Shown in pieces: positions 1-58,423 of a DNA stretch of 64,000 bases. The position numbers were made by a program, and so were the translations under genes. The notes under the pieces were generated by a model. That model was not told the DNA's origin. It saw nothing but the letters and a program-made list of their open reading frames with translations, and did no database searches. Each line of letters begins with the position of its first letter. Positions within the stretch are counted from its first letter, which is position 1. The DNA is from Cladopsammia gracilis (taxonomy: Eukaryota; Cnidaria; Anthozoa; Scleractinia; Dendrophylliidae). Location of the stretch: NCBI GenBank assembly GCA_022457155.1, contig JAJGOT010000503.1, positions 267,501 through 331,500 on the forward strand, written 5' to 3'.

Positions 1-1
1 C

Positions 2-568
2 CCGAAAACCGGTGTACCATGCCTAGAAACAGAAGACGAACAACTGCAAGATCCAGACTTTATTGAAAAACTCAGTTCTGCAAAGAAACTTCTTGAAACA
101 TGGAAAAAAGGTCAGAAACACCTTAACACTTTCTGGAAACTGTGGTTTGATGAATATGTGCTAAGTCTGCGTGAAAGAAGCCAGAAGTACTTAAAAGCCC
201 CTAGAGTTCAATCTAAAGTTCAACCCACAAAGGGAGATGTCGTGTTACTAAAAGAAAGCTCACCAAGAGGAACCTGGAAGTTAGGAATGATCGAAGAAAT
301 CATCACAAGCAAAGATAACGAAGTACGAGCGGCTACGGTCCGAACAGCATCAGGAAAGCTGCTGAACCGACCATTGAACTTTCTGTATCCTTTGGAGTGC
401 GCGCAAGTTAATCAAGAGTCTGACGAGTGTACCGAGCCTGGAAGTAGCAGCCAAAAGCAGAATGATGTACCCAAGCGGAAGAGTGGAAATGAAGCTGCTG
501 AGAAACGCCCTATTCGCAGAGCTGCAGCCGAAGCACGAAGAAAGCTGAACAAATTACTGAACACTTAG
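2..568 (+). pseudogene. BEL/Pao retrotransposon pol, C-terminal end (partial)
   Basis: The frame is open from the window edge to a TAG at 566-568, so the true start lies outside. The product is the tail of a BEL/Pao polyprotein, just after the integrase core: it has the TFWKLWFDEYVLSLRER motif and then the small beta-barrel-like block with VVLLKES, GTWKLGMIEEI, RAATVRTASG and LNRPLNFLYPLE, which is characteristic of this superfamily (DUF5641-type). The last 50 residues are charged and low-complexity. A purine-rich stretch (gcctggggag) and a TGTCACGG start of an LTR follow directly, as expected for a BEL element. Only the 3' end is visible, so whether the element is intact cannot be judged. 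Family call is from motif memory. Confidence 0.85.
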
Positions 569-595
569 GACATAAAACAAACCTTGCCTGGGGAG

Positions 596-1495
596 TGTCA
601 CGGAGAGCTTTCTCCGTGAATAAGGGAACAGTCACGCTTTAGTAACGCGGGACCCCTCGAGGGATTCCCGGTAACACGTGTAAGCCTAAGCGAAATAAAG
701 TCGCCATGTTGAAATGTTGGAGAATGTTGTTGTCTTCACTCGCCCATCGCGACAAGGACACCAAGAGATAACTGGCGACAACTTGAAAATAAGTGTAAAG
801 TTTAATCACACTTGCAAAGTTGAAAAGCCAAATCACTGAGTGTGTTTTCCTTATGTCGGGGCTCGCGGAACGGAAATACCATTTCCTGTTATTCACAGGA
901 CCAAGTATGATGAATTTGAGAACATTTTCCTTCTTGCATTTTGCAAAGGACAAGCTTTCGCGAGGCATTAAACTGCATGACAAAAACCACAGCAACTAAA
1001 CCAATCCACATGGTATAAAGTTTAAAGTGATTGTACAGTCAAATGGAGTTCAACGCTTTATAAACAGTAGTTGGAGAACTGTTGACATAATTTGCTATTT
1101 GTGGCAAATAAGTTTATTTGCAATCAAATAAAGATTTTCATGTCCTTTGCTCAGAATAATTTAATGTATTTAATGTATTTAATTTAGGGGTGTCTATTGC
1201 TTGATTGAAAAGCCAAATCACAGAGTGTGTTTTCCTTACATCGGGGCTTGCGGAACAGAAACATCATTTCCTGTTATTCACAGGACCAAGTATGATGAAT
1301 TTGAGAACGTTTTCCTACTTGCATTTTGCAAAGGACAATCTTTGCGAGGCATTAAACTGCATGACAAAAACCACAGCAACTAAACCAATCCACGTGGTAT
1401 AAAGTTTAAAGTGATTGTACAGTCAAATGGAGTTCAACGCTTTATAAACAGTAGTTGGAGAACTGTTGACATAATTTGCTATTTATGTGGCAAAT
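596..1495 (+). repeat. BEL LTR-like region with a ~290-bp direct duplication
   Basis: An LTR probably begins at TG in tgtcacgg (596), right after the purine tract of the BEL element. Inside it, 821-1107 is repeated almost exactly at 1206-1495 (offset 385 bp). The two copies are separated by about 100 bp with an AATAAA-like context and a reiterated taatgtatt motif. The right end of the LTR was not determined. The duplication could be internal LTR growth or two overlapping LTR remnants. Short ORFs here are not genes. Confidence 0.6.
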
Positions 1496-1519
1496 GTTAT
1501 TATTGTTCTGTTCACCATT

Positions 1520-1732
1520 CTAGTGCATATACAGACAATCAGGCCTCCCACTGACTGTCTCTAACCTACATTTTCTAATGTAACGAGTGTTCCAATTATT
1601 TTTTACTTCATCAAGCCCCACCTGAAGTACTTTTGCAAAGGAGAACCACAAACATTCCTTCTGGAGAGGATCAGCCAAATTGAGATCATCTGCGTCAGCC
1701 ATATCCTTGAAAAAAGTTACCGACCGCCTCAT
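1520..1732 (-). pseudogene. integrase-like (DDE) transposase, C-terminal fragment
   Basis: Reading from 1732 down to 1520, the frame gives LWFSFAKVLQVGLDEV followed by NNWNTRYIRKCRLETVSGRP. That arrangement (helix, then N-x-R-x-I-R and a G-x-P turn) matches the end of the integrase-core proteins that are frequent in coral genomes. No N-terminal part is next to it. An N-terminal piece of what looks like the same family lies at 17370-17517. The fragment is a relic with no start or flanking exons. Confidence 0.45.
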
Positions 1733-1739
1733 GTACCTC

Positions 1740-2690
1740 TCCAGTATTACAGCTCAATGCTGTATAGCCATACTCCTGCGGCAACCCATCACGTGCAGGC
1801 AAGGGGTAGCCAAGATAGCCACATTTTAGACAGATAGCCAGAATGATCAACCATCCATGACATGGTATCAGGTAATGAGGTAATTAAGGGGTGCTCATAT
1901 TTTATAGAGGAGTTGGTTGGTGGATTTTTGGGGGGATAAAAAGGGTCCTCTGCCACACTACTTCACTGCTGCATAATTCTCTAAAGTTAGGTGGAATGAT
2001 CTACAATTCTAGTGTTTTGAAACCTTAGACATGTTATTGTGTCCTTTGGTGGAGTTTAATGCAGCCTTGTGTATTATTACTTCCAGTGAAATTTAACAAT
2101 TGTCAATGACCCCTTTAGGGTTTAGATGGCCTTATTAAATGTTATTTTTCAGCCCTCCTTGAAATCAAATACCACCAACCTCCAGCCTCTCCTAAAAAAT
2201 GAATAGTCCCTTTAAATGCGCATTACCATTGGCATACGATTAATCATACTGGATTTCTTTCTCGTTGACTCTTATGTTATGTGATGTTGCACTGGACAGC
2301 TGTCTTTGGCATTTTTGCTGGAGCATATGAATTCTTAACGATTATGACAAAATGGATACCCTCAATCCCACAATTATGGGGAGTACTGTTCTCCATGCTG
2401 CCAAACAAGACTTAACATGCCTTTTAAAGCAAGCAGTTGTGTTTACTTGTTATCCATTTATGTTAGTCTTTTGTACCGGTTAGGGTACCAGAAGCTTCTT
2501 TTTATCACTTTGTCAAACAAACCAGTTTTACATAGTTTTCAAAACCAGAGCTTTACTACTTCTGTAAAATTGGATATGGGTTGTCATTATCTTTTACCAG
2601 TTTAGGTGGTTGATCGGTTGATCAACTGCTTTAGCTTAGTTCGCTACCAGATTAGTTGACTTAAGTTGAAATTGCAGTTACACACATGCT
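1740..2690. other. no gene recognised
   Basis: AT-rich sequence with short frames only. No inverted ends, tandem repeats or splice-bounded exon could be supported. Confidence 0.5.
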
Positions 2691-2930
2691 GAAAGGCAAG
2701 CAAAACTTCTTTGCGCCATTATTTGTGCCAGCAGAATCGCTGGATCAGTGTATGACGATCTTAGAGTGCCAGTTGCCACCGTCCATGCTTACTACTGTTT
2801 GCAAACGGCAGATCTCCCATGGAGCCTAATAATTCATCACGCCACTTCCCATAATCTTGTTAGTTTGGGACGAGGCCTCTATGTCAGGTCAGCAGATTTT
2901 CAAAATGGCAACTAGTATATTAATTATGTA

Positions 2931-3137
2931 TTGGGCGTAGATCGCTCAATGAAACCCTTTGTTGGGAAACAGATTATCGTTGTGGGCGAATTCCTGCAAC
3001 TTCCACCAGTCCCAAACATATTTGATGAAGGGAGACCCATGTATGAAACTTCAATCTGGCAAAATATAAATCCGCATCAATATGAGCTTGTAACCATTAT
3101 GCGACAGAACACCACAGAAAAGCATTTTATGCAATAG
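2931..3137 (+). pseudogene. PIF1-like helicase fragment (Walker B region)
   Basis: About 68 residues with PFVGKQIIVVGEFLQLPPVPN, a PIF1-family motif II region, followed by YELVTIMRQN, the next conserved block. The acidic residue here is Glu in VGEF where VGDF is the usual form. Upstream motif I is absent within this piece; a separate fragment at 24545-24800 carries a degenerate motif I. PIF1-type helicases in such genomes are usually from Helitrons or similar elements, so this is a mobile-element relic rather than the host PIF1. Confidence 0.75.
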
Positions 3138-3261
3138 GTGGTATTAACTAGTTAATAGAAGTTAGTTAATAGAAAATAGTATGTATTGTACATAGCGATC
3201 ACATTTCAGATGTTATACATCGTGTGTTTATATTGTTCAGTTCGCTCGCTCCATAGTTTAT

Positions 3262-4197
3262 TTGTATCTTGCCATGGTTAAACCTAAACGTTCTTCGCTC
3301 TGCCCCGGCTGCAAGACACCTAAAAGCAACCACAACTTTGCTGCACCGCAGAAACACTGTGCTGGGCCACCACCACAAGGTGAAATTCCTGCTACTTCAG
3401 AGGATGTTATCTCCAACGATGAGGAACCTCGGCCATGCCATGAGATCAATTCACAACCGGCAGCCAGCGTTTCACATGAGCAGACTCTCCTCAACGCTAT
3501 GCATAGTTTATCGCTTCAGTTGACGGCCTTGCAAAGGAGCAGACGGTTATGAAACAATGCATGGGTGAAATCTCCAGTGGGAACGCCCCCAAACCATCTC
3601 ACGAGACTAACCCACGGCCTTCAAGCTCTTCGAATGCCTTACTGCCCGTTGTCTGTACCAGCAAAAAGCAATATTTGCTGGAGAAATTTGCCGCAGCTGC
3701 CATAAATGGTGAGTTAGTGGATTTCTCCAATGTTTTATCCTCACTAAGTGTTTTGCGCTCAGTCAACAGCGACGAAGGAATGTTGCGGTCGCTATCGGGT
3801 GACCTGATTGCCATCGTGATGCCCCCACGCAAGCGTGTCATCAATTCCTTTGACATCTGGCTGCAAGTTTGGACAAAATTCGAAATAGAAATCATCTCCT
3901 CCTGACCAGAACGCTACCTGGAGCTGGCTGCCTATTGCGAACAGATGCAGCTTGCTAAAAGGAAATCAAGGCAACTCGATTCAAATGTTTTGGACACCCA
4001 CCAAACTCTACACTACAATCCTGTACGCCTCTGCTCTCCGTCCCAACCCAAAACAATGTACGTGCTGCAAGTCCTTCGACCACTTGGTTCGGGACTGTCC
4101 CTTTCTTGTGCAAGAGAGGTCACAAGAGGCAGCAGGAAATCTGTCCAAACCATTGCCCACCGGTGGCAATGCAACCGACGCGTGGAAATTCGATAAG
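3262..4197 (+). pseudogene. DIRS-like gag protein remnant with zinc knuckle
   Basis: Three frames must be joined to read a gag-like protein: 3262-3552 (Pro/Ser-rich N-terminus with a CPGC motif), 3549-3905 (ending in the SFDIWLQVWTKFE block) and about 3905-4190 (YLELAAYCEQMQLA, then a zinc knuckle C-x2-C-x4-H-x4-C in CTCCKSFDHLVRDC). The FDIWLQAW-type block followed by a knuckle is typical of gag-like proteins of DIRS/tyrosine-recombinase retrotransposons in cnidarians. Frameshifts at about 3550 and 3905 and the missing pol make it non-functional. Confidence 0.65.
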
Positions 4198-4261
4198 TGG
4201 TATATTAACTCAATTATATTAAGTAGTATATTAACTCAAGTGGTACATTAACTCAAAGAGA

Positions 4262-4760
4262 TGCACAGAAGATGGAAAAGAGTTTATCAAGGGTCTTTCA
4301 CAAAATTTGGATGAAAACTGGTACAGCAAAGCCACTCATATTTTTTAAGAAAGTAAGCGTGACACAAGGAATCCGTTACAGATGTAACATTTGTCCATAA
4401 GGGACAATGTACTTTTCGCCTTTTCCACGATTTCCATTCTGAGCTGCAGTTTGTCAATGCAACGTGTAAATTGTGGTGCCGATCCTTTGTTCTGGAAGAT
4501 GTTTTTCACACCTAACTTCACTGACCACTACCCTGCCATCACATGGTGTATTTTCAAACCATGCAAAGCTAACGGTACAATCTTCTTGGAGGACCTGCCA
4601 CTTGCCATTTCCATCTTCCTTGGTAATTTGTGAAAGAACTCAAAAGAGAGCAAGCCATGCACTATTAAAGTGCGATCAGCAGAGTTTGAAGTGCATTTTA
4701 ATGCGAGGTATTCATGCAAAATAGAAAAGAACGTTCAGGGCACATTGGTTATTCCAGAGT
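4262..4760. other. decayed coding-like stretch, family unknown
   Basis: The minus strand from about 4719 to 4400 reads a long low-stop stretch (HGLLSFEFFHKLPRKMEM, then KLGVKNIFQNKGSAPQF and CYICNGFLVS). The plus strand reads GKEFIKGLSQNLDENWYSKA at 4270-4330. I do not recognise either product. It sits between transposon fragments, so it is probably a further relic. Confidence 0.25.
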
Positions 4761-5023
4761 GCTGCTTCATTAAAAAGGTATTTTAACAGAAAGAAGTTGT
4801 GTAAACATCACATAGAAAATTATCTTAGTGACTCACTTATCTTGGGTCCTATGTGGCTTACATAAACTGATCTAAAATGACTATGTAGGCAATCAGAGCA
4901 TACGTTCTTTCAACAAGATTGAGTTTCTCTGGTCTTCACATCAAAAAATCACCCTATATATTTCTTAATTACTTTCGCCTTGATTATCCAAGTCTGCTTT
5001 TTCTTTTTTAAGGCAATTGTCAC

Positions 5024-5320
5024 TTGCACCAGCACCAATGCAAAACGTCAATCCAACTGTGTTTGAAAACAATGACAACCACTCTCTTTCAACGTAAAGT
5101 GCAAATGATCAAGAGCTTAGGGTCTTGGCCTCTATATTCCATCACAACAGCTTCAGATATTCCATCAACTGAAAGAGATATTATTCACAATTTATTGTTA
5201 GACAGCCCTCCATGCAACTTATTATATGTAACACCAGAAAATGATACCTCTAATATGTACGAAATTTTTTGTAAGATGGAAGCAAAAAAACAGTCTGTTT
5301 TGTTCAAAACTAACGCTAAT
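5024..5320 (+). pseudogene. RecQ-like helicase fragment
   Basis: The segment reads SIPSTER-like helix, then NLLLDSPPCNLLYVTPEN, which corresponds to the motif Ib/LLYVTPE block of RecQ-family helicases. Motif I and the DEAH box are missing. The reading frame ends in TAA a short distance after the conserved part. RecQ-like genes are captured by or hitchhike with many coral mobile elements; a host RecQ exon is unlikely because no splice sites bound it convincingly. Confidence 0.5.
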
Positions 5321-5699
5321 TAATTAATTACTGCATTCTAGACTTATCGTAATGATATACGTCATAATAGCTTATTTAAAATACTGTGAACATTTTCGTT
5401 GTGAACGGAACTAAACCGTCCGAGAAGCCACCAGGAAACTATACATTTGACATTGAGCTAGTTTCTACTTTATAACTATTACTCATGATAATGCCAATAC
5501 TTCTTAGATTTCGAACACACGCCTCCTCGCATATGCTACAGAATAACGAAACCAGCCCTGTGTTTGAAAATGATGGTATTAACTGCCGGACGGTGAACAA
5601 CGAAACATTCGAAATCCGATTGAGTAACTGAATACCCGAGATGTCAGCAGAAAATAAAAAATAGCCAACTGGTCTGCCTTCTGCCAGTTGGGATTTGTA

Positions 5700-5917
5700 A
5701 CATCTAATATTTGAGTGGTGTTATATTCGTATTATATGAAAAACTCGATCAGCTATCGAGGTGCTGTACTTTGGAACATCGCATCCAGGTACTACACTGA
5801 CAATTTCAAGCAATTTTATGCCAGAGCTAAAAAGGACGATTTTATTAAACTGGACTTCAATGCAACCTCGATTCAAACGCAAAGTAGGAATGTAACGGAT
5901 TTTAAGTTTAATTAATG
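5700..5917 (+). pseudogene. LINE reverse transcriptase, extreme C-terminus
   Basis: The frame ends in the motif NSISYRGAVLWN followed by a helix (NFKQFYARAKK) and a short basic tail, which is the usual end of CR1/L2-clade LINE ORF2 proteins. The catalytic domain is absent: this is a 5'-truncated copy. A 3' untranslated segment of AT-rich sequence follows. Confidence 0.7.
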
Positions 5918-6036
5918 TGACCAATCATGTATATAATCATTTTTAATTTTAATATATATAGAAACGTTTTTTATTTAGTGTAGCTAGAAACACGACCCCA
6001 CAAGCAAGATTTTTGCTTTAACTTTTATTGGGTATA

Positions 6037-8012
6037 CAGTACCTCTCAAAAGTAAGTTACCGTTGTCGCGCGCTACGCGATTCGCGTCCTGCGCTACGCG
6101 AATCGCGTAGCGCGCGAAGCTTAAACAGCTTGTACAACTTCTTGCGCGATTCCAATTTTCCTGGGGCGTTTGAAGATGAAGATGCGACCAAGTGAACCAC
6201 CGATCGCGCTAAGCGCATGCAAGGCGACCAAACTTTGGTTCGATAGACGGTGTTTGCTGAACTCTGTATATTTTAAAACAGATCGCGAACACAGCGAACA
6301 ATTATCCATTGCAAAGTTTATCACGAACTTTGCTTCCATTTGCTTGGTTTAAGCATCTTTTTACGGCTTTTTATTGCCGTTGCCAAGCACGTGATAAATA
6401 TCTTCCTCCGGTCAAATTTCACGTCGCGTAAACAAGTCTTCGGAAACATTTTGCCGACTCAGGAAATAATTGCGCTGGATGATCTTCCATAATAAAACAG
6501 CTAGTTTTTCTCTCCCAGAAATGTCATCGAGCATCTGTTTGGCCAAACACGAGCGAGATTCAAGCCAGACAACAGTCCCGTTCTTAAAACGAGCAAGAAT
6601 CAAGCGACGAATGTTTTTCTCACTTAGACGGAGATCACGTGGATGGATCGATGAAACGCTCGCGAAACCAAATTATGCGGCTTATGTTTATTCCCAGCCC
6701 GAAGACACTCCAAACTTTCTGTGATGTTTTAGCGCGGTGGAATACTTGGAAATGAAGAAAGAAAACAGAGAATTTGTGGAAGTTTATATAAATACTTGTG
6801 ACTTTCGCTTGTGCCAGCGTGTCTTCAGGTTTCAAATTACCGTTTTGACATATGCAAATTCGGTGCACTTTTACCACTTTTCCCAAGGGACCGCCAAGCA
6901 CTGTTTTTTACCGACAACTACAACAAACTTCAAAGGGTTTAATTTTTATTTTGCCACCAAACTTTCCCTACCATCTTTAATTTCGATTACAATTTTTAGT
7001 TCCATTCAAGATTTATTTTAATAATAAGTAAACATGAAGTGCAGAAATAATTTTACACATGAATTTTGCGTGACTACCGCACTTGGGACTTCGGGCCGCT
7101 TGTTTACATTCCGCTAACAAGCAGCGACAAAAGAATTAATGTTTTGCAGCCTGATAAAAGAAATCACGTTTATTATTCCCTGGCCTTGAAGTCAAAACCT
7201 TGCTCGATTCAAATAAATGGTAAAACGAGCGTGACTGGTACTATTACTTTATCTTCTCGCGGACTGCTGGCGTAGTCTGTCATTCAGCCATTCACCGCGA
7301 GCCGTTCGAAAGAATTATTTTGCCGTTCGATAGGATAATGAACGTATCAGTAAAGCGACTCTTCGTAGACTGTTTATAATTATGGATTATTGGACGAAAC
7401 TTCGCTCCGCTTTCAACGGGATGTTAGATTTATACCATGGAAATAGTTAGTGAAGGTTGCCGTCACTGAATTAATGCCAAAAGCTGAGCAAACGAAAAGC
7501 GCTAAAAGTGTTGCGTTTCCTGAATCTCGAAGAAATTATAGCGTAGCGCTTGCATCAAACGAAAAACTTCAAAACACATTCGCAATCGATCTCTTTACGG
7601 TTAAATGTCGCTCGCAAACAAAAAAACGCCATTTGATTCACATGTTTAGTTTAGAATTTAGTCGCTGTAATAAACAAATGACATAGTAATTTCGCATAAC
7701 GTGTCGCTTGCGCAAAAATTAACGAAAACTACGAGTACAAACACTTTCGAAACCTATCTGTTTTAATTCGCATGATTTGATGAGGACAGACTGAAACATT
7801 TCCGTCGAGGAAAACACGAAACGCATCGAATACCGAGATACTTTTTGCCTTCCGTTTTCCTGACAACCATCCAGTTGCAGTTACATGTAGATGCCGACCT
7901 TTGCGCGAAATTAATCGGTTTCGCGCAAAATAAACTTTTCGTACAGTGTAATTATTGCCGCTTCGGTGACTCTCGCGCTACGCGACAGGTAACTTACTTT
8001 TGAGAGGTACTG
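6037..8012. mobile_element. 1976-bp mariner-like element with 25-bp perfect TIRs
   Basis: The ends are perfect inverted repeats of 25 bp (6037-6061 and 7988-8012), starting CAGTACCTCTCAAAAG. TA dinucleotides flank both ends (6035-6036 and 8013-8014), which fits Tc1/mariner target duplication. The interior contains only short frames on both strands (for example 6412-6603 minus and 7450-7686 plus), none recognisable as a DDE transposase, so it is probably non-autonomous. It is long for a MITE. Confidence 0.8.
6066..6117. repeat. GC-rich perfect hairpin next to the left TIR
   Basis: Two 21-bp arms (6066-6086 and 6097-6117) are perfectly complementary around a 10-base loop. The arms are made of gcgctacgcga-type sequence, and the same cgctacgcga word recurs beside the right TIR near 7975. 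It may be a subterminal transposase-binding or replication-related structure. Confidence 0.85.
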
Positions 8013-8023
8013 TAAATAAAGGA

Positions 8024-8054
8024 TGTTGTTGTTGTTGTTGTTGTTGTTGTTGTG
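8024..8054. repeat. (TGT)n microsatellite
   Basis: About ten TGT units directly after the right end of the 6037-8012 element. It produces spurious poly-Asn reading on the minus strand. Confidence 0.9.
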
Positions 8055-10640
8055 TGCCTGTGAATTAGCTACATAGCTAAGTGCTCGTCCACTATAAACA
8101 ACATTTACATCTCTAAGACATGACCAAGGAAGGCGCCGAGTTGAAAGAGGCAGGATAAATAGAGCACAAAGAAATGTAGAAACTATGAGCAGACAAGTAA
8201 AACTTGCAGTTGCAGGTAAAAATACAAAGATTTGTAACATAAGTCGCCATATTAATGGCAGCGATTTCAGATTTGGAGGAAAATGTGGGTTAATTGACAG
8301 TTTAAATCACGTACATGAAGGAAAAGTCACCGAAAACGAGAATCTTCAGACAAAAAAATAGGATTCTCAGAGTCAGCCCAACTCACCCAAAACGAAAAAA
8401 GGTTCTCTTTTCACTTTGGGCGAGTTGTGCTTTCAAGTACTTTATTTTGATGTACTAAAAGGTTCTCCCATAAAGACATTGTACAAAGGAAGTTACAAAG
8501 ATGGAGAAGAGAAGAGAATTGGAAGAGAAAATATATCCTCAGCACAAGGGATTTGGGCTAAACACAAAAAACTAAACTGGAGAGAAGATTATTAATTTGT
8601 TTGTGATGAAAACGTCTAACTCAAAAGAAATGTCACTGCTCATCCTCAATTAATGAGAACTTGCTACATGAGTCGGCAAAACAAGCAAAGGTCAAAGTGA
8701 ACTGTCTGATAGGGTATTACATACAGCTGTAGGCACATCATGGACTTGATTGCTTATGGAAGAAATTGGATGAAATGAAATGAAGAGAGCCAGCAAAATA
8801 TCATGGATACAAGAGGCTTTTCTCATGCATGCTCAGATGCTAATGTCTTATATTCCTTAAAGATAACATCCTAAGAAACCTTCCAAAAGACCAGCTGGTA
8901 ACTTGAAGGTGCAATGAATGCAGCGAGTGCAAGAAAAACTATCGGAAATCGAAACCAAGCATACCAAATGTACTGGTACTATGTCATTGGAGCACCATTC
9001 AACTGATGGTTGGTAGCCTAATGATGAAAAGCAGGGAGATCCAAATGAAGTCTTCATTAGAAGTATACAAACTAACTCCAGTCCCCTATTTTTAGTGCTA
9101 GCGACAGCAACCCGCTTCCAAAACCTAGAGACATACATATTCCTACCTTATGAAGTGTCCAGTGTAATGACAATTGACCCAACAATTAATAATGGTGAAT
9201 ACAGTAACACCTGTCACATATTAGGATTCACATTTGGTTTCTAAAAGAATATGGGAGTATCTTATTTGTATATTTGGTTTTGCTCATCAGCCAAACCTTG
9301 ACTCAAGATGTATTTAGTGACTTTATCGTCTCTGTAAAAAAAAAGTCCCGCTCTAAAACAAGGCTTGTGGTCTTTTGGCACAGATGGATAAAGAGCCCCG
9401 TAAAAGGGCACTAGAAGAAGTAGTTGTTGTTAATTGATTTCCTAACAGTATTAAGCTTATAAGCTTAGGTCTTTGAGCCATTTTCAAACAACGTAAAGGA
9501 ACACCTGAAAGATGTTGGCACTGACAGCAAAAACAAACTTATTAATTATCGGTTCGGGCAAAGTGATGGTAATGGAATCAACAAAGAAGGCCTGTTGTTG
9601 TTGCTTTGTTTAATTGGAACATTTCCACCTTCACACTAGCCAATGCCAGAAAGGCAGTTAAGGCCTGGGCTCCACCAGTAACGTTTCACACACACAGCTG
9701 TAAAAGTAACAGTCATATGATCAAACACGAGGAAAGATATCATGAAGTTTCATTGCCCAAGTATGTGCACGATAAAAGAGTTAAGGAGAAACTATGATGG
9801 CGGTATTGATCTTCATTTCGCACCAAACATGAAGCAGTACAACGAAAGGCAGCACGATTTTGTACAAATTGTTGGGATTGAGAACCAGGAACTGTTTTAC
9901 TATTGCTCAAGGAATTAAATTGGGAAACACTCAAACTGAGTAGAGGCAAAGAGCAAGACTGACAATGTTTTATAAATCTGCCCATGACCTGTGTACCCTT
10001 GTACACATATACCCTTATTTTTATTTATCTTTTATTGTACTAATTTAGTTCGCGGCATTTCCTGTAAACTAGCTGGTGTGTCTCTTAGGTACACTACTTT
10101 TTGCTAAGCGTAACTGTACACATTAAATAAAGTTATTGTATTGCATTGGCAGCAATCCCGACACCAGACTACATTGTTCCGATGCCCACAATTGAAACCT
10201 GGCAGTACCATCCAAAGACATTTTATGGCTTGAACACAAAAAACTTACAGTTAAAAAGTAAACTGCCTCCTCCAAGAGCAGAGCCTCCTGCAAAGCTACC
10301 AGGGACAACAGTTGCTTGTCTTCCCAAAGGCAACAAATCAACATGTACCAAAACATTGGTATATAAGTCAAACAATAGTTCGGGAACAGGAACAGTTGAA
10401 GAATCTTATGATATCCATGCAGTTAATACCACGTCACAACTCATCAGGATCAATGGATGGCTCAAGCCAGTCAGGTAGGCCACACCACAACTCATGAGGA
10501 CTGCTACTTCTAGGCATGGGAAACAATGCAGGAACCAGGATTTTGTACAGATGAAAAATGTGTTGCAAAACGAAAGAAAAAGAAAGGGAAATAATGCATC
10601 TGAAAAAGACTACTGGAGATATCCCAATGAACTAAAACTT
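8055..10640. other. no secure gene; one long anonymous frame
   Basis: Mostly AT-rich with short frames. The one frame worth noting is 10146-10478 plus (110 residues, Pro/Thr-rich, beginning near PTPDYIVPMPTIETWQYHP). It shows no domain I know, has no clear Kozak ATG and could be a piece of a decayed exon. No inverted ends were found. Confidence 0.35.
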
Positions 10641-12254: not shown

Positions 12255-12655
12255 CAATAGGGTCCTGAAGTGTGATGTCACAAACATTTAAATTTTTGAA
12301 ATTATGGGATTTGATGAGATATTCGGAAAGAGCATCATGAAAAATGTCCACTTGCCAAAAATCAGCATCTTATAGTAATTTAGCAGCGAGATACTGGCAC
12401 TTTCATGCTCTGATGACTCTATACAAACCCTTCTAATTTTGCCTCAGTTCTAAACAGTTAGAACAGAGGCAAATTTAGAAGGGTTTGTATAGAGTCATCA
12501 GAGTATGAAATTGCCAGTATCTCACCCCCAAATTAGAATAGGAAGCTAATTTTTGGGAAGTGGGTATTTTTCACCATGGCCTTTTAGAACGTCTCATCAA
12601 ATCCCATAATTTCACAAATTTAGTTTTTGTGACGTCATCACTTTAGGACTATGTG
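12255..12655. mobile_element. fold-back MITE, ~190-bp arms
   Basis: The sequence from about 12255 to 12455 is repeated as its reverse complement from about 12463 to 12655, with a spacer of only about 8 bases. The inner 60 bp of the arms are nearly identical (tctatacaaacccttct and partner); the outer parts carry small indels and end near TGACGTCA-like sequence. A rearranged relative occurs at 42303-42375. The HECT-carrying element starts within a few bases of its right end. Confidence 0.8.
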
Positions 12656-12660
12656 AACCT

Positions 12661-13065
12661 ACGGTGGCCCATAAGGGTCACCGCTTTCTGGAATAAATTT
12701 TGCAAATATTTAAAACAAAAGCACTACAACTGAATAAATGCACTGCAAATAAAATAAATCCGCATACTACAAACAAAATAAATGAACCCGCACACTGCAA
12801 ACAAAATAAGTTCGCACGCTGCAAACAAAAAAAATCTGCACGCTGCAAACAAAATAAATCTGCACGCTGCAAACAAAATAAATTCGCACGCTGCAAACAA
12901 AATAAATATTCACACCGCAAACAAAATAAATTCGCACGCTGCAAACAAAAAACTGGCACGCTGCAAACAAAATAAATCTGCACGCTGCAAACAAAATAAA
13001 TCCGCGCACTGCAAACAAAATAAAAAGTTCTGCGTGCGCAGATAGATGTGAAGTACTGGGACCAA
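12661..13065 (+). repeat. left long TIR with 24-bp minisatellite
   Basis: Starts with an imperfect palindrome (CGGTGGCCC-ATAA-GGGTCACCG). From about 12741 to 13035 it holds roughly 11-12 units of a 24-bp repeat, consensus near AAACAAAATAAATCTGCACG plus CTGC. Because 24 is divisible by three the array is open in several frames on both strands (Cys/Phe-rich or Asn/Lys-rich peptides); these are not genes. The array is immediately upstream of the HECT start codon and so would lie in its promoter or leader. Confidence 0.9.
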
Positions 13066-13087
13066 GTCTCATGCTTTGGCAACCAAC

Positions 13088-15739
13088 ATGGCGTCGTTCC
13101 TGAAGAAGGAAATTCAATCAGCAGTAAAAGACGAAATTTCCCGTGTTCTTAGTTCAACAGCGACTAGTTTAATTTGTAATTCCGCTTCTACATCTACTGG
13201 GAACAGTCACAATTCTGCTTCAGCTTCGAGCTCTGCCGAAGATAACTCAGAATTCTATGCTCTTCGTGAGGAAGAGCGTCCAGGAACAATTTAAGCCTCC
13301 AAAAAAGAAAAAGAAGAAAAACCAACTAGCAAGTCGACGATTCCTACTACGAAGGTCGTAGATGTAGAAGTGAAGGTTGGCATTGCGTTTCAGACCGATG
13401 GTGTTTTCAAGGTTCGACGGGGCAAGACGCACTCCGTGACAGTTAAATCTGCCGCCGACAAGGAAGAGATCATCCGAAAGGCTATAGCAAAACACTCAAG
13501 CTTTGACCAGAGTTTTGATGGGAATAATTCCTACAGCTTGCTCTTCCCCGATTTCAGCGAAGTTAAGTTCGTTCCTGGGACGAAGGAACCATTTGTGTTG
13601 TCTTCATATAAGAAAGCTTTAGGGAAAGATTACAAGCGCATTTCGCTTTTCCTGATCCCAGTTGACGAGTTTGTAGATGGGTGCGATGATGATACCGACA
13701 ACAGTTCTTCGGAAGAATGTACAAACAAGGGAGGTATTGCCAAGTATTTTACTGGGCCTGCAGGATGTGCTACCCCCCACCCTAAACAGGATATAGTCTT
13801 AAGTGATGGTGATGAAAACCTTCTTGGTGCCTCGACAAACCCGGAAGGTGAGTATTTGTAGGCTTGTTCATTCAATTTGCGGGAAATTTCGTCTTTGTGT
13901 AGCCTGTTCACAGACTTTTCTCTTTTTTAGCTTTTTTCTGTCACCTGTGAGTGACAGTGCAAAGCGTGAAATAGAGTGCAGGGCGCTTGAAAGAAAAAAA
14001 AAAGTCTGTGGTCTAAAGAAGCAAACAGATGTTTTTTGTCCTCTTCCACGTGTCAACATCTTTTTGTTAACAGTGTCATCCTCACAATATTCATTAAATT
14101 GGACCAATGAAAATCCAGAGATTAATTGCTCGCATAATTGGCTGAAGTCAAGTTTTGAGAAAGTCTTCTGAAAACTTCTATTTCTGAAACGATTCCGAAG
14201 AATGGTGATGACCTTTGCTTTGAGGAAGCTTAAAATTGCTTATTCTTTCTGTTCCTGTCGAGTGCCAAACTATTTGAAAATTTTTTCAGCTACTCATTAA
14301 GCAAATGCTCCATGATCTTTGTAATAAAATATCCTTTTCAGTTTCCAGGCACTTGAGAAATTTAACTGATATGTTAATTAAAACTGGTGTTTGAAATTTG
14401 AAAATGATTCTATGTTGATGCATTTCAGATACCGCCAGCAATGTTGAGGACTTCCTATTGAAATGTGCTATTGACCAGAGCCTGATGAATCAGGAAGCCA
14501 TTGTCCATAACACAGTGAAAGAAAGGTCTGAAGAAGTCCCTCCAAAATCCTTGGAAGAAGCATTGGAACAAACTTTGAATTGTTTTCCAAATGAGCAGTT
14601 CACGTTCATTGAAGTCACTAGAAAGAATATAGTAACAAGGACATTCGAATGCTTAGAAGAGGAAGATCTCAAAGCAAGAGTAACAGTTAAGTTAATAGGG
14701 GAGGAGGCAGTAGACTCGGGAGGGGTGACAAGGGAGTTTTTTTTCTGAACTTTTCCGTGGATTTGGTGTGTATAGTATACTGGTAAGGGGAACATACCCT
14801 CACATCACTTTCAGACACAACCAAGAGGCCTTAGATAAAGGCTTATTTGAGTTGTTTGGGAAACTTGTTGCTATTGCCATTGTAAATGGTTGCCCGGGGC
14901 CCCATTTCTTTACCCCTATGGTAGCAGGATTTATATTAGAGATCCCTCAAGAACCTCATTTGAATGAAGTTCCAGATGAATGTGAGTTCCTGGCTCAGCT
15001 TGAGGACATTTCATCTTGCTGTGATGAGGCATCATTTCTCAATGCTGTTCAATCATTTCCCGAACGATTTGATATGGGCTTCACAAAAGCAACTGTGAGA
15101 TTAGAAGACAAGAATGATCTTTTGAATGCATGTGTCAAACATATAGTGTTGTATAGTGTTGCCGAGGAAATCTATAGCTTCAGGAAAGGGCTAGCTTCTT
15201 TTGGTGTTTCAGAGATGCTGTGTAAATTTCCCAGTGATGGCATAAAGAAGCTAATGCATGTGGACATTTCTGTAGAGGATGTGAAAAGCTGTTTTTTCCC
15301 TTGTTTTTCAACTCCAGGATTTCAACAGCATGAGAAGGAAACAGATATTGTCTACAACTGGCACAGTTTCCTGCGCAGTGCCAGCAAGGGGAAATTGAAA
15401 TGTAATGTTTACCCTTTCCCTGAAACAACTTCCCCTGATACTGGTGAACAGAATGATGCAGAGAATGGTGCACAGAATGGTGCACAGAATTATGCAGAAC
15501 TCAAAGTTCTCACATTGGGTGATGTACTACAATTTGGCAGTGGGTCCCGTTTCCCTAATTTCTCAGGAAAATTGAAGTTTGATCATGACAGTACATCGAC
15601 TGAAAAAAGAATTAGTGGAAACACATGTTCCCTTACCATCACAATACCAGTGAACAAGTGGTATACTTGTAACAGTAACGAATTTGTCTTTAATTTCATG
15701 GAAGACATTTTTGAGGATTATGGGTTTGGGTTACCATAA
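13088..15739 (+). pseudogene. HECT-domain E3 ubiquitin ligase (G2E3-like), broken
   Basis: Ubiquitin ligase that would accept ubiquitin on a cysteine and pass it to substrates. Exon 1 is 13088-13847 (ATG in aacATGG; donor G|gtgagt), exon 2 is 14429-15739 (acceptor tttcag|AT); the phases join to give GAT. The N-terminus has a short helix (FLKKEIQSAVKDEI), Ser/Thr-rich and Lys-rich parts, a globular segment and an acidic stretch. Exon 2 holds the HECT domain: DSGGVTREFF, a LFGKLVAIAIVNG helix, and near the end SGNTCSLTITIP, where Cys at 15626-15628 fits the catalytic cysteine; GFGLP ends the protein. Two lesions: a TAA at 13292-13294 and an eight-T run (14739-14746) one base too long, which shifts frame between REFF and SELFRGFG. 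Similar proteins are strongly expanded in corals. Confidence 0.8.
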
Positions 15740-16490
15740 ACGTGGTTATCAATATGTTCTGCTTATACATGTATGTTTAAGTTGAGAAAAATTCTCAATT
15801 TACAATATGACTTCAGAGATTACGTAGTTTGGTTTTAGTTCAACTCGGCCAAGAAATGAGCATGTGGACCATCTGTTTTTAAAACGTTAAAATGTTGTAT
15901 TGTTTTTTTTAGATTTCCTTTTCAGCACATTTTGAGTTTGCACCCTTGTCAGAAACAGAAAAACAAATCAGTGGAAACAGAAGTAATGTTTTTTACCATT
16001 ATGAATAAATGAGGGTTATTTTTAGTTATTTTTTACAACTAACTACTACTGTTAAGCAGTTTTCTAATCCAGTTTTGACGATAATGGGAACCTTTTCAGT
16101 CTGTCATGTTGAAGTTAATATATTGGGTTTCTTTTCCCGTGTCCAAACACTTAGTAATATTAATCCTCATCTGACGCAATAACGATGTCAAGGCACGACT
16201 AATATAGGTGTTTTAAATTACTTTTGAAAATGAATAACTGAACATCCATTCAACAAATCTTGCATGGTATAGCTTTCCCTGCATGGCAATGGAGCCGGCT
16301 AAAAATTGCTTTGGTCAGATGAGGATGTAAGCAGTTTGTTAGCCTTTGTGTAGATTCTCCTAACATGTTCAGAGATATCAAGTTACATCAGCTTGGGGAG
16401 TGGTGTGGTTGAATGTAAAAAAAATATGATCTAATAAAAAGATATGTTGGCGTTTTAACTCGAATTTTAATATGGCTTTGAATGTTGAAT
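15740..16490. other. no gene; probable 3' region of the HECT gene
   Basis: AT-rich sequence without long frames. An AATAAA lies at about 16004-16009 and could be a polyadenylation signal for the HECT gene. Nothing else is supported. Confidence 0.4.
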
Positions 16491-16494
16491 GACC

Positions 16495-16679
16495 ATACAC
16501 CACTTTCATAATGGCGGCCAATTTATTTATTCTTTTATATGTATGTTAATTAGCCTTTCTGGCCTCATTGGCGTGTGCAAAATTCAAAAGAATTTGTATT
16601 CTAAAACGAGGCCAGTGAGGCTAATTAACATACATATAAAAGAATAAATAAATCGGCGGTAATTATGAAAGTGGTGTAT
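16495..16679. mobile_element. short palindromic MITE
   Basis: Arms of about 72 bp (from atacaccactttcataat) face each other around a ~40-base loop. Both arms contain ttatatgtatgttaattagcc. It is nested inside the HECT-carrying element, so it inserted later or is part of a longer-diverged version of it. Target duplication not resolved. Confidence 0.8.
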
Positions 16680-16910
16680 ACATGTGCATGTATAAAGTAC
16701 TTGTAAGCAGGCCCCAATACAATAATTTATTCCGAGCAAGCCCACTAGGGAGTCTGCATGGAAATAACATCATCATCATCAAATCAAAGGCCTTCCGTCT
16801 TCCCGCCAGTTGAAGAAATTAATAGAGTCAGAACTAGAGTCAGAACTAAAAGTATTTTGGAAAGTTTGTCTGGTTAGTATCTCGTATAAACTTTCCTTGG
16901 TGTGCTCAAT

Positions 16911-16934
16911 ACGGTGGTCCATAAGGGAGACCGT
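16911..16934 (+). repeat. third copy of the element-end palindrome
   Basis: ACGGTGGTCCATAAGGG followed by AGACCGT closely resembles the first 24 bases of the long TIRs at 12661 and 18034, but no minisatellite follows it. It may mark the end of a second, truncated family member inside the first. Confidence 0.6.
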
Positions 16935-17184
16935 AGCTCAAGTCCATCCCCCTTCCCACTCCCCCACCCTTAAATCAGCCTACTGGCAAATATTAGTGGC
17001 CAGAGCCTCAATTTACCATAGAAGACTTCAAGTACTGTTTAGCAAGTGAAAATTCAAGACATTAAAACAAAACGCTTTAAAATACTTGTCTCTGAATCTT
17101 CCTTAGCCCTTTGCAAACCGAGCAACGTTCTGAAAGAGATTGCCTGCCTCAGAAATAGAGGTGGGGTGTGAAAAAAAACATTTT

Positions 17185-17517
17185 TCCATCACGTATTCAA
17201 ATTGGAAGTACTCCTCCCAGATTGGGTCAATGTCTTCAACACCCAATTCTTGCAACCTATCTTCCATTTCTCTTAGCTTGTCTGAAACTTGAAATAGTCA
17301 ATTCCCCCAAATTCTTCTGGAAGAAAGTACATGTACATCATATCAGGCACACCTGACACGGTAGCATGCTTACACTTCCTGATGCGATGGGAATTCCAAT
17401 ATTCCTTTACATACGCGTTCAACTAGATCAGCATTCACAGCATCCCCTCTTTTGAGGCCATAGTCTTTCAGCCTTCGTTTCAGTGTTCGTTCATTCATAT
17501 CTATGATGATGTTTGCC
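17185..17517 (-). pseudogene. integrase-like transposase, N-terminal HTH fragment
   Basis: Read from 17517 downward, the frame gives IIIDMNERTLKRRLKDYGLK then DAVNADLVERVCKGILEFPSHQ before a TAA at 17370-17372. The S/NERTL-RRL-xYGL pattern is the helix-turn-helix at the start of the integrase-core proteins common in coral genomes, whose C-terminal type is seen at 1520-1732. A second short run in the same strand (REMEDRLQELGVEDIDPIWE, about 17190-17290) may be from the same gene. The DDE core is missing. Confidence 0.5.
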
Positions 17518-17611
17518 TAACATCAGCATTATGCCTGTACGTAAGCGTAAGGCCCCAGTTGAAATAATATTCGGCATAACTACAGAATACAGGGCAATTT
17601 CCTTCGAAGGA

Positions 17612-18034
17612 CTCGTTCCCACTACTTCACGTCTCCCAGCGCGCGCAGAACTTTTTATTTTGTTTGCAGCGTGCAGATTTATTTTGTTTGCAGCGTGCCA
17701 GTTTTTTGTTTGCAGCGTGCGAATTTATTTTGTTTGCGGTGTGAATATTTATTTCGTTTGCAGCGTGCGAATTTATTTTGTTTCAAGATTTATTTTGTTT
17801 GCAGCATGCAGATTTATTTTGTTTGCAACGTGCAGATTTATTTTGTTTGCAGCGTGCAGATTTTGTTTGTTTGCAGCGTGCGAATTTATTTTGTTTGCAG
17901 TGTGCGGGTTCATTTATTTTGTTTGTAGTATGCGGATTTATTTTATTTGCAGTGCATTTATTCAGTTGTAGTGCTTTTGTTTTAAATATTTGCAAAATTT
18001 ATTCCAGAAAGCGGTGACCCTTATGGGCCACCGT
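17612..18034 (-). repeat. right long TIR with 24-bp minisatellite
   Basis: Reverse-complement copy of 12661-13065, including the non-repetitive inner edge (aaaagttctgcg and gtgaagta-tggga) and the palindromic outer end. The 24-bp array spans about 17660-17955. Unit number and unit variants differ from the left copy, so the two have diverged or re-expanded since insertion. Confidence 0.9.
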
Positions 18035-18220
18035 ATGAACCTTAATCTACCAAATTATTTCTCTTCAAGTGATTTATGGAGTCTTGTTAACAGTAAATGG
18101 ACACTTATTGAAGGCCCCTGTAATTGTTGATGACGATGATAATAATAATAATAATAAAAACAACAATGGATTCGGGACTGGCATGGTGCAAATGAACATT
18201 CATTCTCTCTCTCCCTAAAG

Positions 18221-18342: not shown

Positions 18343-18407
<65 letters not shown>
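18343..18407. repeat. (AC)n microsatellite
   Basis: About 32 AC dinucleotides without interruption. It yields a spurious Cys/Val ORF on the minus strand. Confidence 0.97.
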
Positions 18408-18421: not shown

Positions 18422-18840
18422 CAGTAAAAGCTCACTCATAAGAACCTAGTTATTAAGAACCTGTAGGCTTAAATTTTAAAATTACAATCCTCATTATACA
18501 AGAACCTGTTGGAAAATCACAAAAAAAAGAACAATAAGAACGTTTTATATGGCAATCAGGATGAGCAGAATCTCTTGTAATTTCAATACAAGAAATTGAT
18601 AATCATACACTGTACAGTCAGTACACAAGTTCATAACTGCGATTTCTGCTTCTGCTCTACTCAAGTTGTGTAACCACACACAAGGGACCACCCCCATTTG
18701 GACCAGCTACAAGCATCTTTTCAACTTAAGGAAATAAGAGCCTGTTTAAGAACCTAAATAGCCTAGATTCTCAGCAGACACCACATATGCAAGAACCGTT
18801 TAAGGCTAACCTGGAAAATCTAGGTTCTTGTAGGTGGATA
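18422..18840. mobile_element. AAGAACCT-rich MITE, decayed copy
   Basis: Begins CAGTAAAAGCTCACTCATAAG with TA before it, contains several AAGAACCT words, and ends near ctaggttcttgtaggtgga. It matches a better preserved relative at 33982-35214. It lies within the putative intron before the ISL2EU transposase exon. Confidence 0.7.
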
Positions 18841-18877
18841 CATGTAATGTCTGTTAGACTTAAATTTTTATTACAGT

Positions 18878-19509
18878 GGCCAGAGCATGAGGAACTCCAA
18901 GCCACCATGCCTGTGGTTTTCCAACACAACTTTGGCAAAAAAGTTGCATTCATCATTGACTGCGTTGAGATATTTACAGAAAGACCATCTAGCCTAATTG
19001 CTAGGGCAATGACATGGTCTAACTATAAACATCACAATACTGTTAACTTTCTCATAGGTGTAACACCACGAGGTGTTATCTCATTTATATCAAAGGCATA
19101 GGGTGGGAGAGTCAGTGACAAATATCTTACTGAAAATTCTGGTTTGTTGAGGAAACTTTTACCTGGGGACATAGTGCTTGCTGATAGGGGCTTTGATATA
19201 GCTGACAGTGTGGGTTTTTATCAAGCTCGCCTTCATATACTGGCATTTACCAGAGGCAAAAAACAGCTGGCTGCAGAGGAAGTAGAGGCGACAAAGAAAA
19301 TTGTTAATGTAAGAATCCATGTAGAAAGAGTAATTGGTCTTGTATGCAGAAAGTACACTATATTACAAGGAATACTCCCTATTCAGCTAGGGACAGCTTG
19401 GCAAGGAAATGATTTGGCTCCAATAGACAAAATTGCAATAATCTGCTGTGCACTTACTAATCTGTCAGAGTACCTTTTGATTAAATATTTTAGACCTTTT
19501 CTAGCATGA
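18878..19509 (+). pseudogene. ISL2EU-type DDE transposase, one in-frame stop
   Basis: Transposase of the ISL2EU (IS4EU) group with a DDE_Tnp_4-like catalytic core. The exon opens after a polypyrimidine acceptor (tttttattacag|TGG) and reads WPEHEELQATMP, then FIIDCVEIFTERPS (first Asp), [31 protein letters not shown] (second Asp) and [10 protein letters not shown] (Glu), followed by a C-terminal helix with CCALTNL. The three catalytic residues are all present. A TAG at 19099-19101 replaces the Trp expected in the SKA-W-GGRVSDK motif (one-base change from TGG). The N-terminal THAP-type DNA-binding part expected for this group was not found upstream. It faces a YqaJ gene on the other strand. Confidence 0.85.
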
Positions 19510-55800: not shown

Positions 55801-58375
55801 ACTTTAAAACAATACGATGGGGTCGATAAATTGCAATCAGCAAACACCAAAACAGTGCTGAACTGCCGATAGACAATGCACATGACAATGTGTGAACCAG
55901 GCTTTTAGCCAGAAATTGAAAAGTGGCCGTCCAGAAGATATTTTCCATCATAATTTTTAAAGGATTAAGTGCAATTTTCATGAATTTCTTCAAAAAGTGG
56001 GCGTCCACAGGACGCCTGGACGCCCTGCTGGCTAAAAGCTTGGTGTGAACTTCTGAAAACTGAATAAATCTTTCACTGAAGTCCACGACCAAAACCGTTT
56101 CCGTTCCTTTTACAAAGAAGCATAATTTAGACAACTAGCTTTCTTTGAAATATTTCTTGAATCTGATAAAGGATTTCATACACAATAGATATATATTTGT
56201 ATACCGTATCATGTTTCCGGGCATGTTTCAAAAGGACTTCAGTTCTGTAATTTTCTGCTAATATGAATATGACCACCAGTTACGGTATTTTATAGTCACG
56301 CGCAAGATTATACTGAGGTTTGACAATATTGAGACACAATGTGACTCTAAAGTATTTGTTAATAATTGTTTTTACTTTGAGATATTTTGCCCCTGTATTG
56401 TAATACGTATGGACAACAAAGGAATAATTAACAGATGCCTATAAACATGAAATGTAATGTGATACTTGTGTTTAGTAGATTTCAATTCAGCTGAATCTGT
56501 TTGAAAACGGCTTTCGGTTCAGACAAATTTACCAGAAATTTTAAAACAAATTCGATCTCTTACATTACTTCTGTAATTTGAATTTCCTAAAAAATTTCCC
56601 CTCAAAAAACTTCACTTGCCCGTTGGGCAAGCGGAGGATAGAATCCACTAGCCCGACCGCAAAATCCACTAGCCCCGGGCTATCGGACACGACTTTCTTT
56701 GCACGCTGAAGTGGCTGTCTCTAGTTGCAGGACACTTTTTCTGCTTCCCAGGGATGTCCGCTTATGGGAGCTTTAACTGTAATCATATTTTACGGGCCAT
56801 AACTTTTTACTGAGCCTCGTTTACCTGTTATTTTATCCAGTTACATCAATAAATGGGAGATTTAAGTTTAGTGGGGGCAGAATAGGAAATTTGACTTTTA
56901 GGAGTCAGAGTAAAAACTAATCTTTACAAGTGCATTATGAAAGTTGGTAGTCCAGCTCCAATTTCTCTTAAAATTAATTTTGCAACCCTGAAACAACATG
57001 AGATAAATATGTGCACTATGTCCATTCAGTTTCTGCAAACACTACTTCAATTAGCCCACCTTTCTTGTCCCTGTGTTCAATATCAGAGCCTTTGACTAAC
57101 AGAAGAGTTACAAGCTCATCATGTCCTCCAGCAGCAGCCAGTGTGAGAGCAGTGTCCTGAGTTACTGTCTGTTTGCTGATCCACATCAATCATAGGTGGA
57201 AACTGTGGAGATGCTGGTGAGGGGGTTGGGGTCAGGGGCACTGATGAGGTACCAAGATCCGGAGGGGTAGGAGGACTGCTGTTATTGCTTGAGTCTGAAA
57301 TAAAGTAAATGTGTGTCAATACTGCAAAGTTCTGACACACAAGCTACTGTACAGTTGTTATTACTGTGCTTTTCAATAACATGCAAACTCTAAAGTTCAA
57401 ACTCGACAGAACAGTTTTGTTTTCACTACCGCAATTATCATAGTGGATGCGTCAGGTAACAAGAATGCTCAACTCAACAGGGTCAAAATATCATGTTTGT
57501 GGGTAGTGATTGGTGGATTTTGATCATTTTGTCAGTTCCTGTTTTCAGGTGTTGATTGACGGCAGTGTAAAATGCAAACATTAGCTGTGGGTTTGACAGG
57601 GGTTTCAACAGAAGCCGGCTACTGGCGGTGTACCGCCACCTACTTTGCCTCTCACCACTAGTTACTGAAACTGTAACTGAATCTCACATCACAAATAGAA
57701 CTCAAAATGTAACAACTTCAATCCCTACAAATTTCTACTGTCTTACGTTTCACTCAATTTCACGCTCGGAATGCTGGAAATTGCATTTCTGAGCCCCTAG
57801 ATTGCAAAATTTTGTGGGGGGTATGCCCCAGACCCCCCTAGTGGGACGGGCGCTTATGGCCCCTTATCTGTCATAGCCGCCAATTATACCTTGTCCAACC
57901 GCCTACTTCAATTCTTTTTGAAACCCCTGGTTTGAACTTTAGAGTTTGTGTGTTATTGAAAGGTGCAGTAAAGCAGTTACAGCAGAGGTCATATGACTCA
58001 AATGCCTGGTTTTACATGTAGAGTTGCTCTTTGGTTAAAGGTTGTTGTTTACAGGAGATGATTGCATAAAAGAGAATCTATATTACATGTACTGGTATAT
58101 ACAGTGATTTCATATGGTATACTAAAGTGATTTCAGATAAGGTGATTTGTTAAAGGAGACATTTTTTGCTTTCATCTTGGTTCTGCTTGAAAATGTTATC
58201 AATTCTCATCTTTCTTGTGCCACTGAGAGTCTAAAATAGTCATTTTGTTACATAATTGATTGTTCTTTTAAACAACTACTGGAGTAATGTTTATTCCTCC
58301 TGTAAATGCTTTGATTGTAATCTACTTTGTAACAGAATGTTTGTAGTCAATAAAGTTCATAAAATTATAAATATT

Positions 58376-58423
<48 letters not shown>

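What the first reader, a model, noticed from the sequence alone, without database searches (positions are those of the whole stretch)
12661..18034. A HECT ubiquitin-ligase gene enclosed in a transposon-like unit with long minisatellite TIRs
Seen: ~410-bp inverted repeats at both ends with identical outermost bases, an 8-bp flanking duplication (GTGAACCT / ATGAACCT), a HECT gene starting 23 bp inside the left TIR, and an integrase HTH fragment starting just inside the right TIR, the two reading toward each other. Known: HECT (G2E3-like) and integrase-core genes are both strongly expanded in corals. Inference: the HECT gene is cargo or a working part of a DNA transposon, which would explain that expansion, perhaps by marking the host's defence or the transposase for degradation.
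Basis: partly seen in the sequence, partly recalled or inferred. Interest (0 to 1): 0.88.

Follow-up and report, generated by a model that had tools for sequence, protein, structure and literature searches.

The report
IS3EU-type coral transposon carrying HECT ligase
A damaged jumping gene with complete ends, in what looks like a coral genome, holds both the remains of its own cut-and-paste enzyme and a ubiquitin-ligase gene, so some coral ubiquitin-ligase genes may belong to mobile DNA rather than to the host.

Summary
The transposon is real, but the finding misreads its ends. The unit is 12660-18035: it begins TACGG, ends CCGTA and is flanked by an exact 6-bp duplication, TGAACC, not an imperfect 8-bp one. 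These features match published IS3EU diagnostics. Inside lies a 26-bp palindromic micro-insert (16910-16935) with IS3EU-like ends and its own exact 6-bp duplication, GCTCAA. The minus-strand relic (17572-17106) belongs to a family of PF24764 integrase-core proteins (search E 2e-56); its catalytic core is deleted. The plus-strand gene is an intron-bearing HECT gene, about 80% identical to its nearest relatives, with a putative catalytic cysteine and coding breaks. Both genes start close to their TIR and converge. Fungal TET+ IS3EU families have an alpha-kinase gene oriented opposite to the transposase, so HECT plausibly fills an accessory slot. Whether HECT recurs in coral IS3EU elements could not be tested: the genome search answered none of 19 requests, and 6 viral and 2 GTDB scans found no relative DNA. 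One dead copy cannot separate an accessory gene from a one-off capture.

The parts
12654..12659 (.). left target-site duplication TGAACC
   Evidence: exact match to 18036-18041
12660..13068 (+). left TIR, begins TACGGTGGCCCATAAGGGTCACCG (hairpin-forming palindrome); inner edge judged by eye
   Evidence: hairpin z-score -5.99
12743..13024 (+). 24-bp minisatellite inside left TIR, 11.7 copies
13088..13847 (+). HECT gene exon 1 (N-terminal region), with an in-frame stop at 13292-13294, which a pair of compensating indels may explain
   Evidence: 46% identity to P0016 over 13094-13690; ORFs
13848..14428 (+). HECT intron, GTGAGT..TTTCAG
   Evidence: read; close relatives P0001-P0006 lack the exon-1 part
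14429..15739 (+). HECT gene exon 2 with the HECT domain; frameshift in the T run 14737-14744; putative catalytic Cys codon at 15626
   Evidence: Pfam HECT E 1.8e-6; 77% and 81% identity to P0002 in two pieces; Cys in 12 of 12 rows that reach it, of 15
16495..16679 (.). nested foldback, 75-nt arms, probably a Tc1/mariner-type MITE
   Evidence: I13; the MITE type is inference
16904..16941 (.). 26-bp micro-insert TACGGTGGTCCATAAGGGAGACCGTA (16910-16935) between exact 6-bp duplications GCTCAA
17106..17572 (-). transposase relic: residues 32-84 (HTH part) and 312-411 (C-terminus) of P0018 recognisable, residues 85-311 (whole DDE core) missing, several frameshifts; residues 1-31 not recognised
17610..18035 (-). 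right TIR, ends CCACCGTA; inner edge judged by eye
17654..17952 (-). 24-bp minisatellite inside right TIR, 12.7 copies
18036..18041 (.). right target-site duplication TGAACC

Best explanation
Shown: 12660-18035 is an inserted cut-and-paste DNA transposon with IS3EU-type termini and an exact 6-bp target-site duplication, holding a HECT gene and a convergent, core-deleted transposase. Inferred: in the active ancestor both genes were driven from promoters in or next to the minisatellite TIRs, the transposase cut at the TA ends, and the HECT protein was an element-encoded accessory enzyme. My most likely function for it is to ubiquitylate a host factor that silences the element (about 0.35). Next is ubiquitylation of the transposase itself, to set its dose or to clear it from the joined DNA so that gaps can be repaired (about 0.30). 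Plain cargo is the first rival. This copy has no catalytic core, so it moved with transposase supplied in trans, or lost the core after insertion. The micro-insert is best read as a related element collapsed to a single terminal palindrome.
For: Termini and 6-bp duplication match IS3EU as described in sections read of PMC10045372 and PMC12730594. An independent 26-bp insert has the same kind of ends and its own exact 6-bp duplication (no hit under 60 bp in 200 control sequences). The relic finds 31 proteins, 29 of them with PF24764, the best two 72% and 74% identical over the parts compared; D, D and E are conserved in 13 of 13 rows of the alignment of chosen intact relatives. HECT is confirmed by Pfam, and a profile of 11 relatives matches RSP5, E 3.9e-8. 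The putative catalytic Cys is kept in 12 of 12 rows that reach it, of 15. Both genes begin near their TIR and converge. Fungal TET+ IS3EU families have transposase and alpha-kinase genes in opposite orientations. The HECT gene has an intron, which argues against a retrocopy.
Against: Only one copy was seen, with both genes broken; no second element with HECT between IS3EU ends was found. No IS3EU reference transposase was at hand for a tree, so the superfamily call rests on ends, duplication and domain type. The Pfam and structure-profile matches cover mainly the N-terminal lobe of HECT; the C-terminal lobe and its Cys rest on a recalled motif. Four relatives tested score below Pfam's HECT cut-off. 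The control gave up to 3 hits in one random sequence. The paper does not say in the passage read whether the fungal genes point toward or away from each other. No expression or activity evidence.
Confidence: 0.62

Rival explanations
1. One-off capture: an IS3EU element picked up a cnidarian host HECT gene by chance, and it plays no part in transposition.
For: Only one HECT-bearing copy was seen; related HECT proteins occur in named cnidarians (Paramuricea clavata; Hydractinia symbiolongicarpus) and may be host genes.
Against: HECT lies directly behind the TIR, mirror-image to the transposase, rather than at a random place; fungal TET+ IS3EU have a comparable second gene; the HECT coding sequence is much less decayed than the transposase.
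Confidence: 0.28
2. A long-TIR element of another superfamily with 7-8-bp duplications (P/Galileo, hAT, Mutator-like), as the 8-bp reading would suggest.
For: Long TIRs with tandem repeats are recalled for Galileo and Foldback-type elements; the 8-bp comparison matches at 7 of 8 bases.
Against: The duplication is exact only as 6 bp with TA ends; a second insert shows the same; the relic is of the PF24764 integrase-core type.
Confidence: 0.04
3. A host HECT locus that happens to lie between two separate IS3EU ends, not one unit.
For: An extra terminal palindrome lies at 16910-16935, so more than one insertion of this kind occurred here.
Against: The outer ends are inverted, identical over 150 bp, and flanked by the same exact 6 bp, which separate insertions would not be expected to give.
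Confidence: 0.04

Closest known systems
IS3EU/GingerRoot superfamily of DNA transposons (PMC10045372, abstract, passages and section 3.3; PMC12730594, passages and sections 3.1.3 and 4.1)
   Same: TA..TA ends of the TAYGG..CCRTA form, TIRs over 30 bp, 6-bp duplications, integrase-like transposase without an HHCC motif, and in fungal TET+ families a second gene oriented opposite to the transposase.
   Different: The second gene is HECT, not alpha-kinase or TET/JBP; TIRs are about 409-426 bp and filled with a 24-bp minisatellite. The word HECT does not occur in the main text of either paper (0 occurrences).
RAG-like (RAGL) transposons (PMC7204232, passages)
   Same: Two convergent genes, transposase and partner, between TIRs; the paper notes E3 ubiquitin ligase activity for the dimerisation domain of RAG1.
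   Different: 5-bp duplications, different transposase and ends, and the ligase activity sits in the transposase itself.
Helentrons carrying VTD/OTU deubiquitinase domains (PMC9741609, passages)
   Same: A transposon encoding an enzyme of the ubiquitin system, cnidarians among the hosts.
   Different: Rolling-circle element; removes ubiquitin rather than adding it; the domain lies in the open reading frame of the Helitron itself.
G2E3-like HECT proteins, e.g. Paramuricea clavata P0007
   Same: 47% identity over the whole searched HECT protein.
   Different: The genomic setting of P0007 was not seen; whether it lies in a transposon is unknown.

Membership tests
IS3EU superfamily | TA..TA termini, TAYGG..CCRTA form | tested here: met
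   TACGG..CCGTA at 12660 and 18035; definitions read
IS3EU superfamily | 6-bp target-site duplication (usual length) | tested here: met
   TGAACC exact on both sides; micro-insert GCTCAA exact
IS3EU superfamily | TIRs longer than 30 bp (stated for the fungal TET+ families) | tested here: met
   about 409 and 426 bp
IS3EU superfamily | transposase falls in the IS3EU/GingerRoot clade | tested here: inconclusive
   relatives of the relic carry PF24764 (29 of 31). Of 3 intact relatives scanned, all pass PF24764, 1 passes HTH_21, and rve matches stay below cut-off. No IS3EU reference sequence was at hand for a tree
IS3EU superfamily | no HHCC zinc motif upstream of the core | tested here: met
   among invariant and nearly invariant columns of A3 before D159 there is only one Cys, C155, so no conserved HHCC set; scans of 3 relatives gave HTH but no integrase zinc-binding models
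IS3EU superfamily | intact DDE transposase in this copy (autonomy; not required for membership) | tested here: not met
   residues 85-311 of P0018 with D159, D218, E259 are missing
HECT E3 ligase | HECT domain above Pfam cut-off | tested here: met
   28.3 bits, cut-off 23.9, profile positions 27-201 of 306; relatives P0007, P0009, P0010 and P0065 score below it
HECT E3 ligase | catalytic cysteine near the C-terminus | tested here: met
   Cys at 15626 in NTCSLTITIP; 12 of 12 rows reaching the site, of 15; its assignment as catalytic is by recalled motif
HECT E3 ligase | ubiquitin transfer activity | not testable with these tools
   no assay; the fold prediction of P0007 failed (pLDDT 37)
P/Galileo or hAT | 7-8-bp target-site duplication (recalled) | tested here: not met
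   8-bp flanks differ at one base; the exact duplication with TA ends is 6 bp

The most novel reading that the evidence does not exclude
IS3EU elements have a standing slot opposite the transposase for an enzyme that modifies proteins: alpha-kinase in fungi, HECT ubiquitin ligase in cnidarians. Much of the cnidarian G2E3-like HECT expansion would then be transposon genes that fight silencing or control the transposase, not host immunity genes.
Probability: 0.45. Interest if true: 0.85.

Novelty: new variant of a known kind. Interest (0 to 1): 0.58.

Why it matters
If HECT is a regular gene of coral IS3EU elements, counts of ubiquitin-ligase genes in coral genomes would need re-reading, since some would be transposon genes. 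Transposons would also be seen to carry a ubiquitin-adding enzyme, the counterpart of the deubiquitinases in Helentrons. The exact ends and duplication given here make the question directly testable in any coral assembly.

Tried and rejected
The 8-bp duplication was rejected for the exact 6-bp one. The 53768-56208 hit of the same scan was set aside as chance because its ends are not inverted repeats. A processed-retrocopy origin of HECT was rejected because the gene has a GT..AG intron.

DNA relatives were sought and not found. Six scans of viral contigs: 2 of the terminal palindrome (0 matches), 2 of HECT (no pattern match; 34 stretches, none a relative) and 2 of the integrase (1 stretch; 21; none a relative). 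Two scans of GTDB: integrase (14 stretches) and HECT (137 stretches), none a relative.

Structure prediction gave poor models (pLDDT 37; 51). The fold search of the second had no match at E 0.001 or better and is not used. The integrase profile matched no solved structure at E 0.1.

Literature: searches returned 0 papers for combinations of HECT or IS3EU with transposon and coral terms. Searches (24 papers, 20 listed; 16 listed; 994 papers, 25 listed; 12 papers, 11 listed) were judged by title, counts and start of abstract; none was seen to describe HECT in such a transposon, but most were not opened, including two with several HECT mentions. Searches (35 papers with IS3EU, 20 listed; 4 papers with GingerRoot) led to the IS3EU papers. 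Passages or sections were seen of PMC9741609, PMC12314368, PMC10045372, PMC12730594, PMC8195603 and PMC7204232. The library lacks most subscription journals, and Repbase could not be searched.
Full report
What is there. The finding describes a transposon-like unit with long inverted repeats around a HECT gene. The inverted repeats are real: the left runs about 12660-13068, the right about 17610-18035 (inner edges judged by eye). Their outermost 150 bp have no mismatch, the first 200 bp have 2, the first 230 bp have 6. The inner part is a 24-bp minisatellite with 11.7 and 12.7 copies and differs by indels between the sides.

Ends and duplication. If the element is taken to begin TACGG and end CCGTA, the flanks are TGAACC on both sides, exact. 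I scanned the window for every TAYGG..CCRTA pair 20 bp to 12 kb apart with exact 6-bp flanking duplications. From 64 start and 117 end sites, three pairs qualified: the whole element, a 26-bp insert at 16910-16935, and 53768-56208. In 200 first-order Markov sequences the mean was 0.375 hits, the largest 3, and none held a hit shorter than 60 bp. So the control does not by itself set the long element apart, but its identical inverted ends do; the short insert is beyond the control. The third hit has no inverted ends and is taken as chance.

The 26-bp insert. TACGGTGGTCCATAAGGGAGACCGTA lies between GCTCAA and GCTCAA. It matches the outer end of the large element at 21 of 26 bases. The end of the large element is itself a strong hairpin (z-score -5.99) and the insert a weaker one (-3.05). 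The simplest reading is a related element reduced, by deletion between its two terminal palindromes, to one palindrome. This is inference, but it gives independent support for 6-bp duplications and TA ends.

Family. Kojima and Bao (PMC10045372, section 3.3 read) say complete IS3EU families always have TA..TA termini and usually 6-bp duplications, and place IS3EU with GingerRoot. Section 3.1.3 of PMC12730594 (read) gives TIRs over 30 bp and TAYGG..CCRTA ends for fungal TET+ IS3EU. All these are met. Clade membership of the transposase could not be tested for lack of reference sequences.

Transposase relic. On the minus strand, pieces matching residues 32-84 and 312-411 of P0018 lie at 17572-17412 and 17410-17106, in several frames. 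The search with the relic, its missing core filled with X, found 31 proteins: 29 carry Pfam PF24764 and 8 carry HTH_21; the best has E 2e-56 and 72% identity; two are named from Stylophora pistillata. Of 3 intact relatives scanned again, 3 pass PF24764 and 1 passes HTH_21. D159, D218 and E259 are conserved in 13 of 13 intact relatives chosen for alignment A3, and all three lie in the missing part. This copy cannot make a working transposase of this type. The near-identity of the outer TIRs and the exact duplication fit movement with transposase supplied in trans, or loss of the core after insertion.

HECT gene. The likely ATG is at 13088, about 20 bp inside the left TIR. The gene has an intron (13848-14428, GTGAGT..TTTCAG) and ends at 15739. 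It is broken by a frameshift in the T run 14737-14744 and by a stop at 13292-13294, which paired indels may explain. Pfam HECT is above cut-off over the N-terminal lobe. A profile of 11 relatives matches RSP5 and other HECT structures by sequence, again over the N-terminal lobe in the best match. A Cys in the place expected from the recalled HECT motif is present in 12 of 12 rows that reach it, of 15 (alignment A1 holds the window and 14 of the 17 proteins). One search found 17 relatives, the closest about 80% identical; search 73 with an alignment found 36. In both only the roughly 8000 candidates sharing most words were scored. Named sources are Paramuricea clavata and Hydractinia, so I take the host to be an anthozoan, which is inference. 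The closest relatives P0001-P0006 lack the exon-1 part, which fits a shared intron; P0007, P0009 and P0010 contain both parts.

Why the HECT gene may belong to the element. HECT starts immediately behind its TIR; the recognisable transposase starts about 40 bp behind the other, its first 31 residues not recognised; both point inward, as if each TIR held the promoter. PMC12730594 section 4.1 (read) reports that all fungal TET+ IS3EU families carry transposase and alpha-kinase genes in opposite orientations, with the TET/JBP gene between them. RAG-like transposons also pair a transposase with a convergent partner gene, and the RAG1 dimerisation domain has E3 ligase activity (PMC7204232, passages). 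Helentrons carry deubiquitinases (PMC9741609, passages). These are resemblances, not tests.

What could not be done. The decisive test is to count TIR-bounded copies with and without HECT in coral genomes. The genome search did not answer any of 19 requests, and 6 viral-contig scans and 2 GTDB scans gave no relative DNA. The claim that HECT is a regular part therefore rests on one dead copy plus anatomy.

Verdict. IS3EU-type transposon with a HECT gene inside: about 0.93. HECT as an element-encoded accessory gene rather than a one-off capture: about 0.62. Its function is open; the favoured guess is action on host silencing.

Noticed in passing
window 1526-1720: A second integrase-core relic on the minus strand, 50% identical to P0019 residues 292-355, with no IS3EU-type inverted repeat in the list for 1-9000.
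   Followed up: partly
window 12262-12649: A long foldback (165-nt arms 12289-12453 and 12458-12622, 85% complementary, by eye extending to GTCCT..AGGAC) ends 4 bp before the left duplication of the element.
   Followed up: partly
window 18730-19509: A DDE_Tnp_4 transposase (Pfam E 1.5e-14 and 1e-27 in two adjoining ORFs separated by a stop) lies beside the element, a different transposon.
   Followed up: no
window 18343-18407: A perfect (AC)n microsatellite of 32.5 units just outside the element.
   Followed up: no
window 44487-45917 and 58377-59171: Minus-strand ORFs that look like parts of an ANKHD1/ANKRD17-type host gene; the name is recalled, and Pfam gave no match above cut-off.
   Followed up: partly
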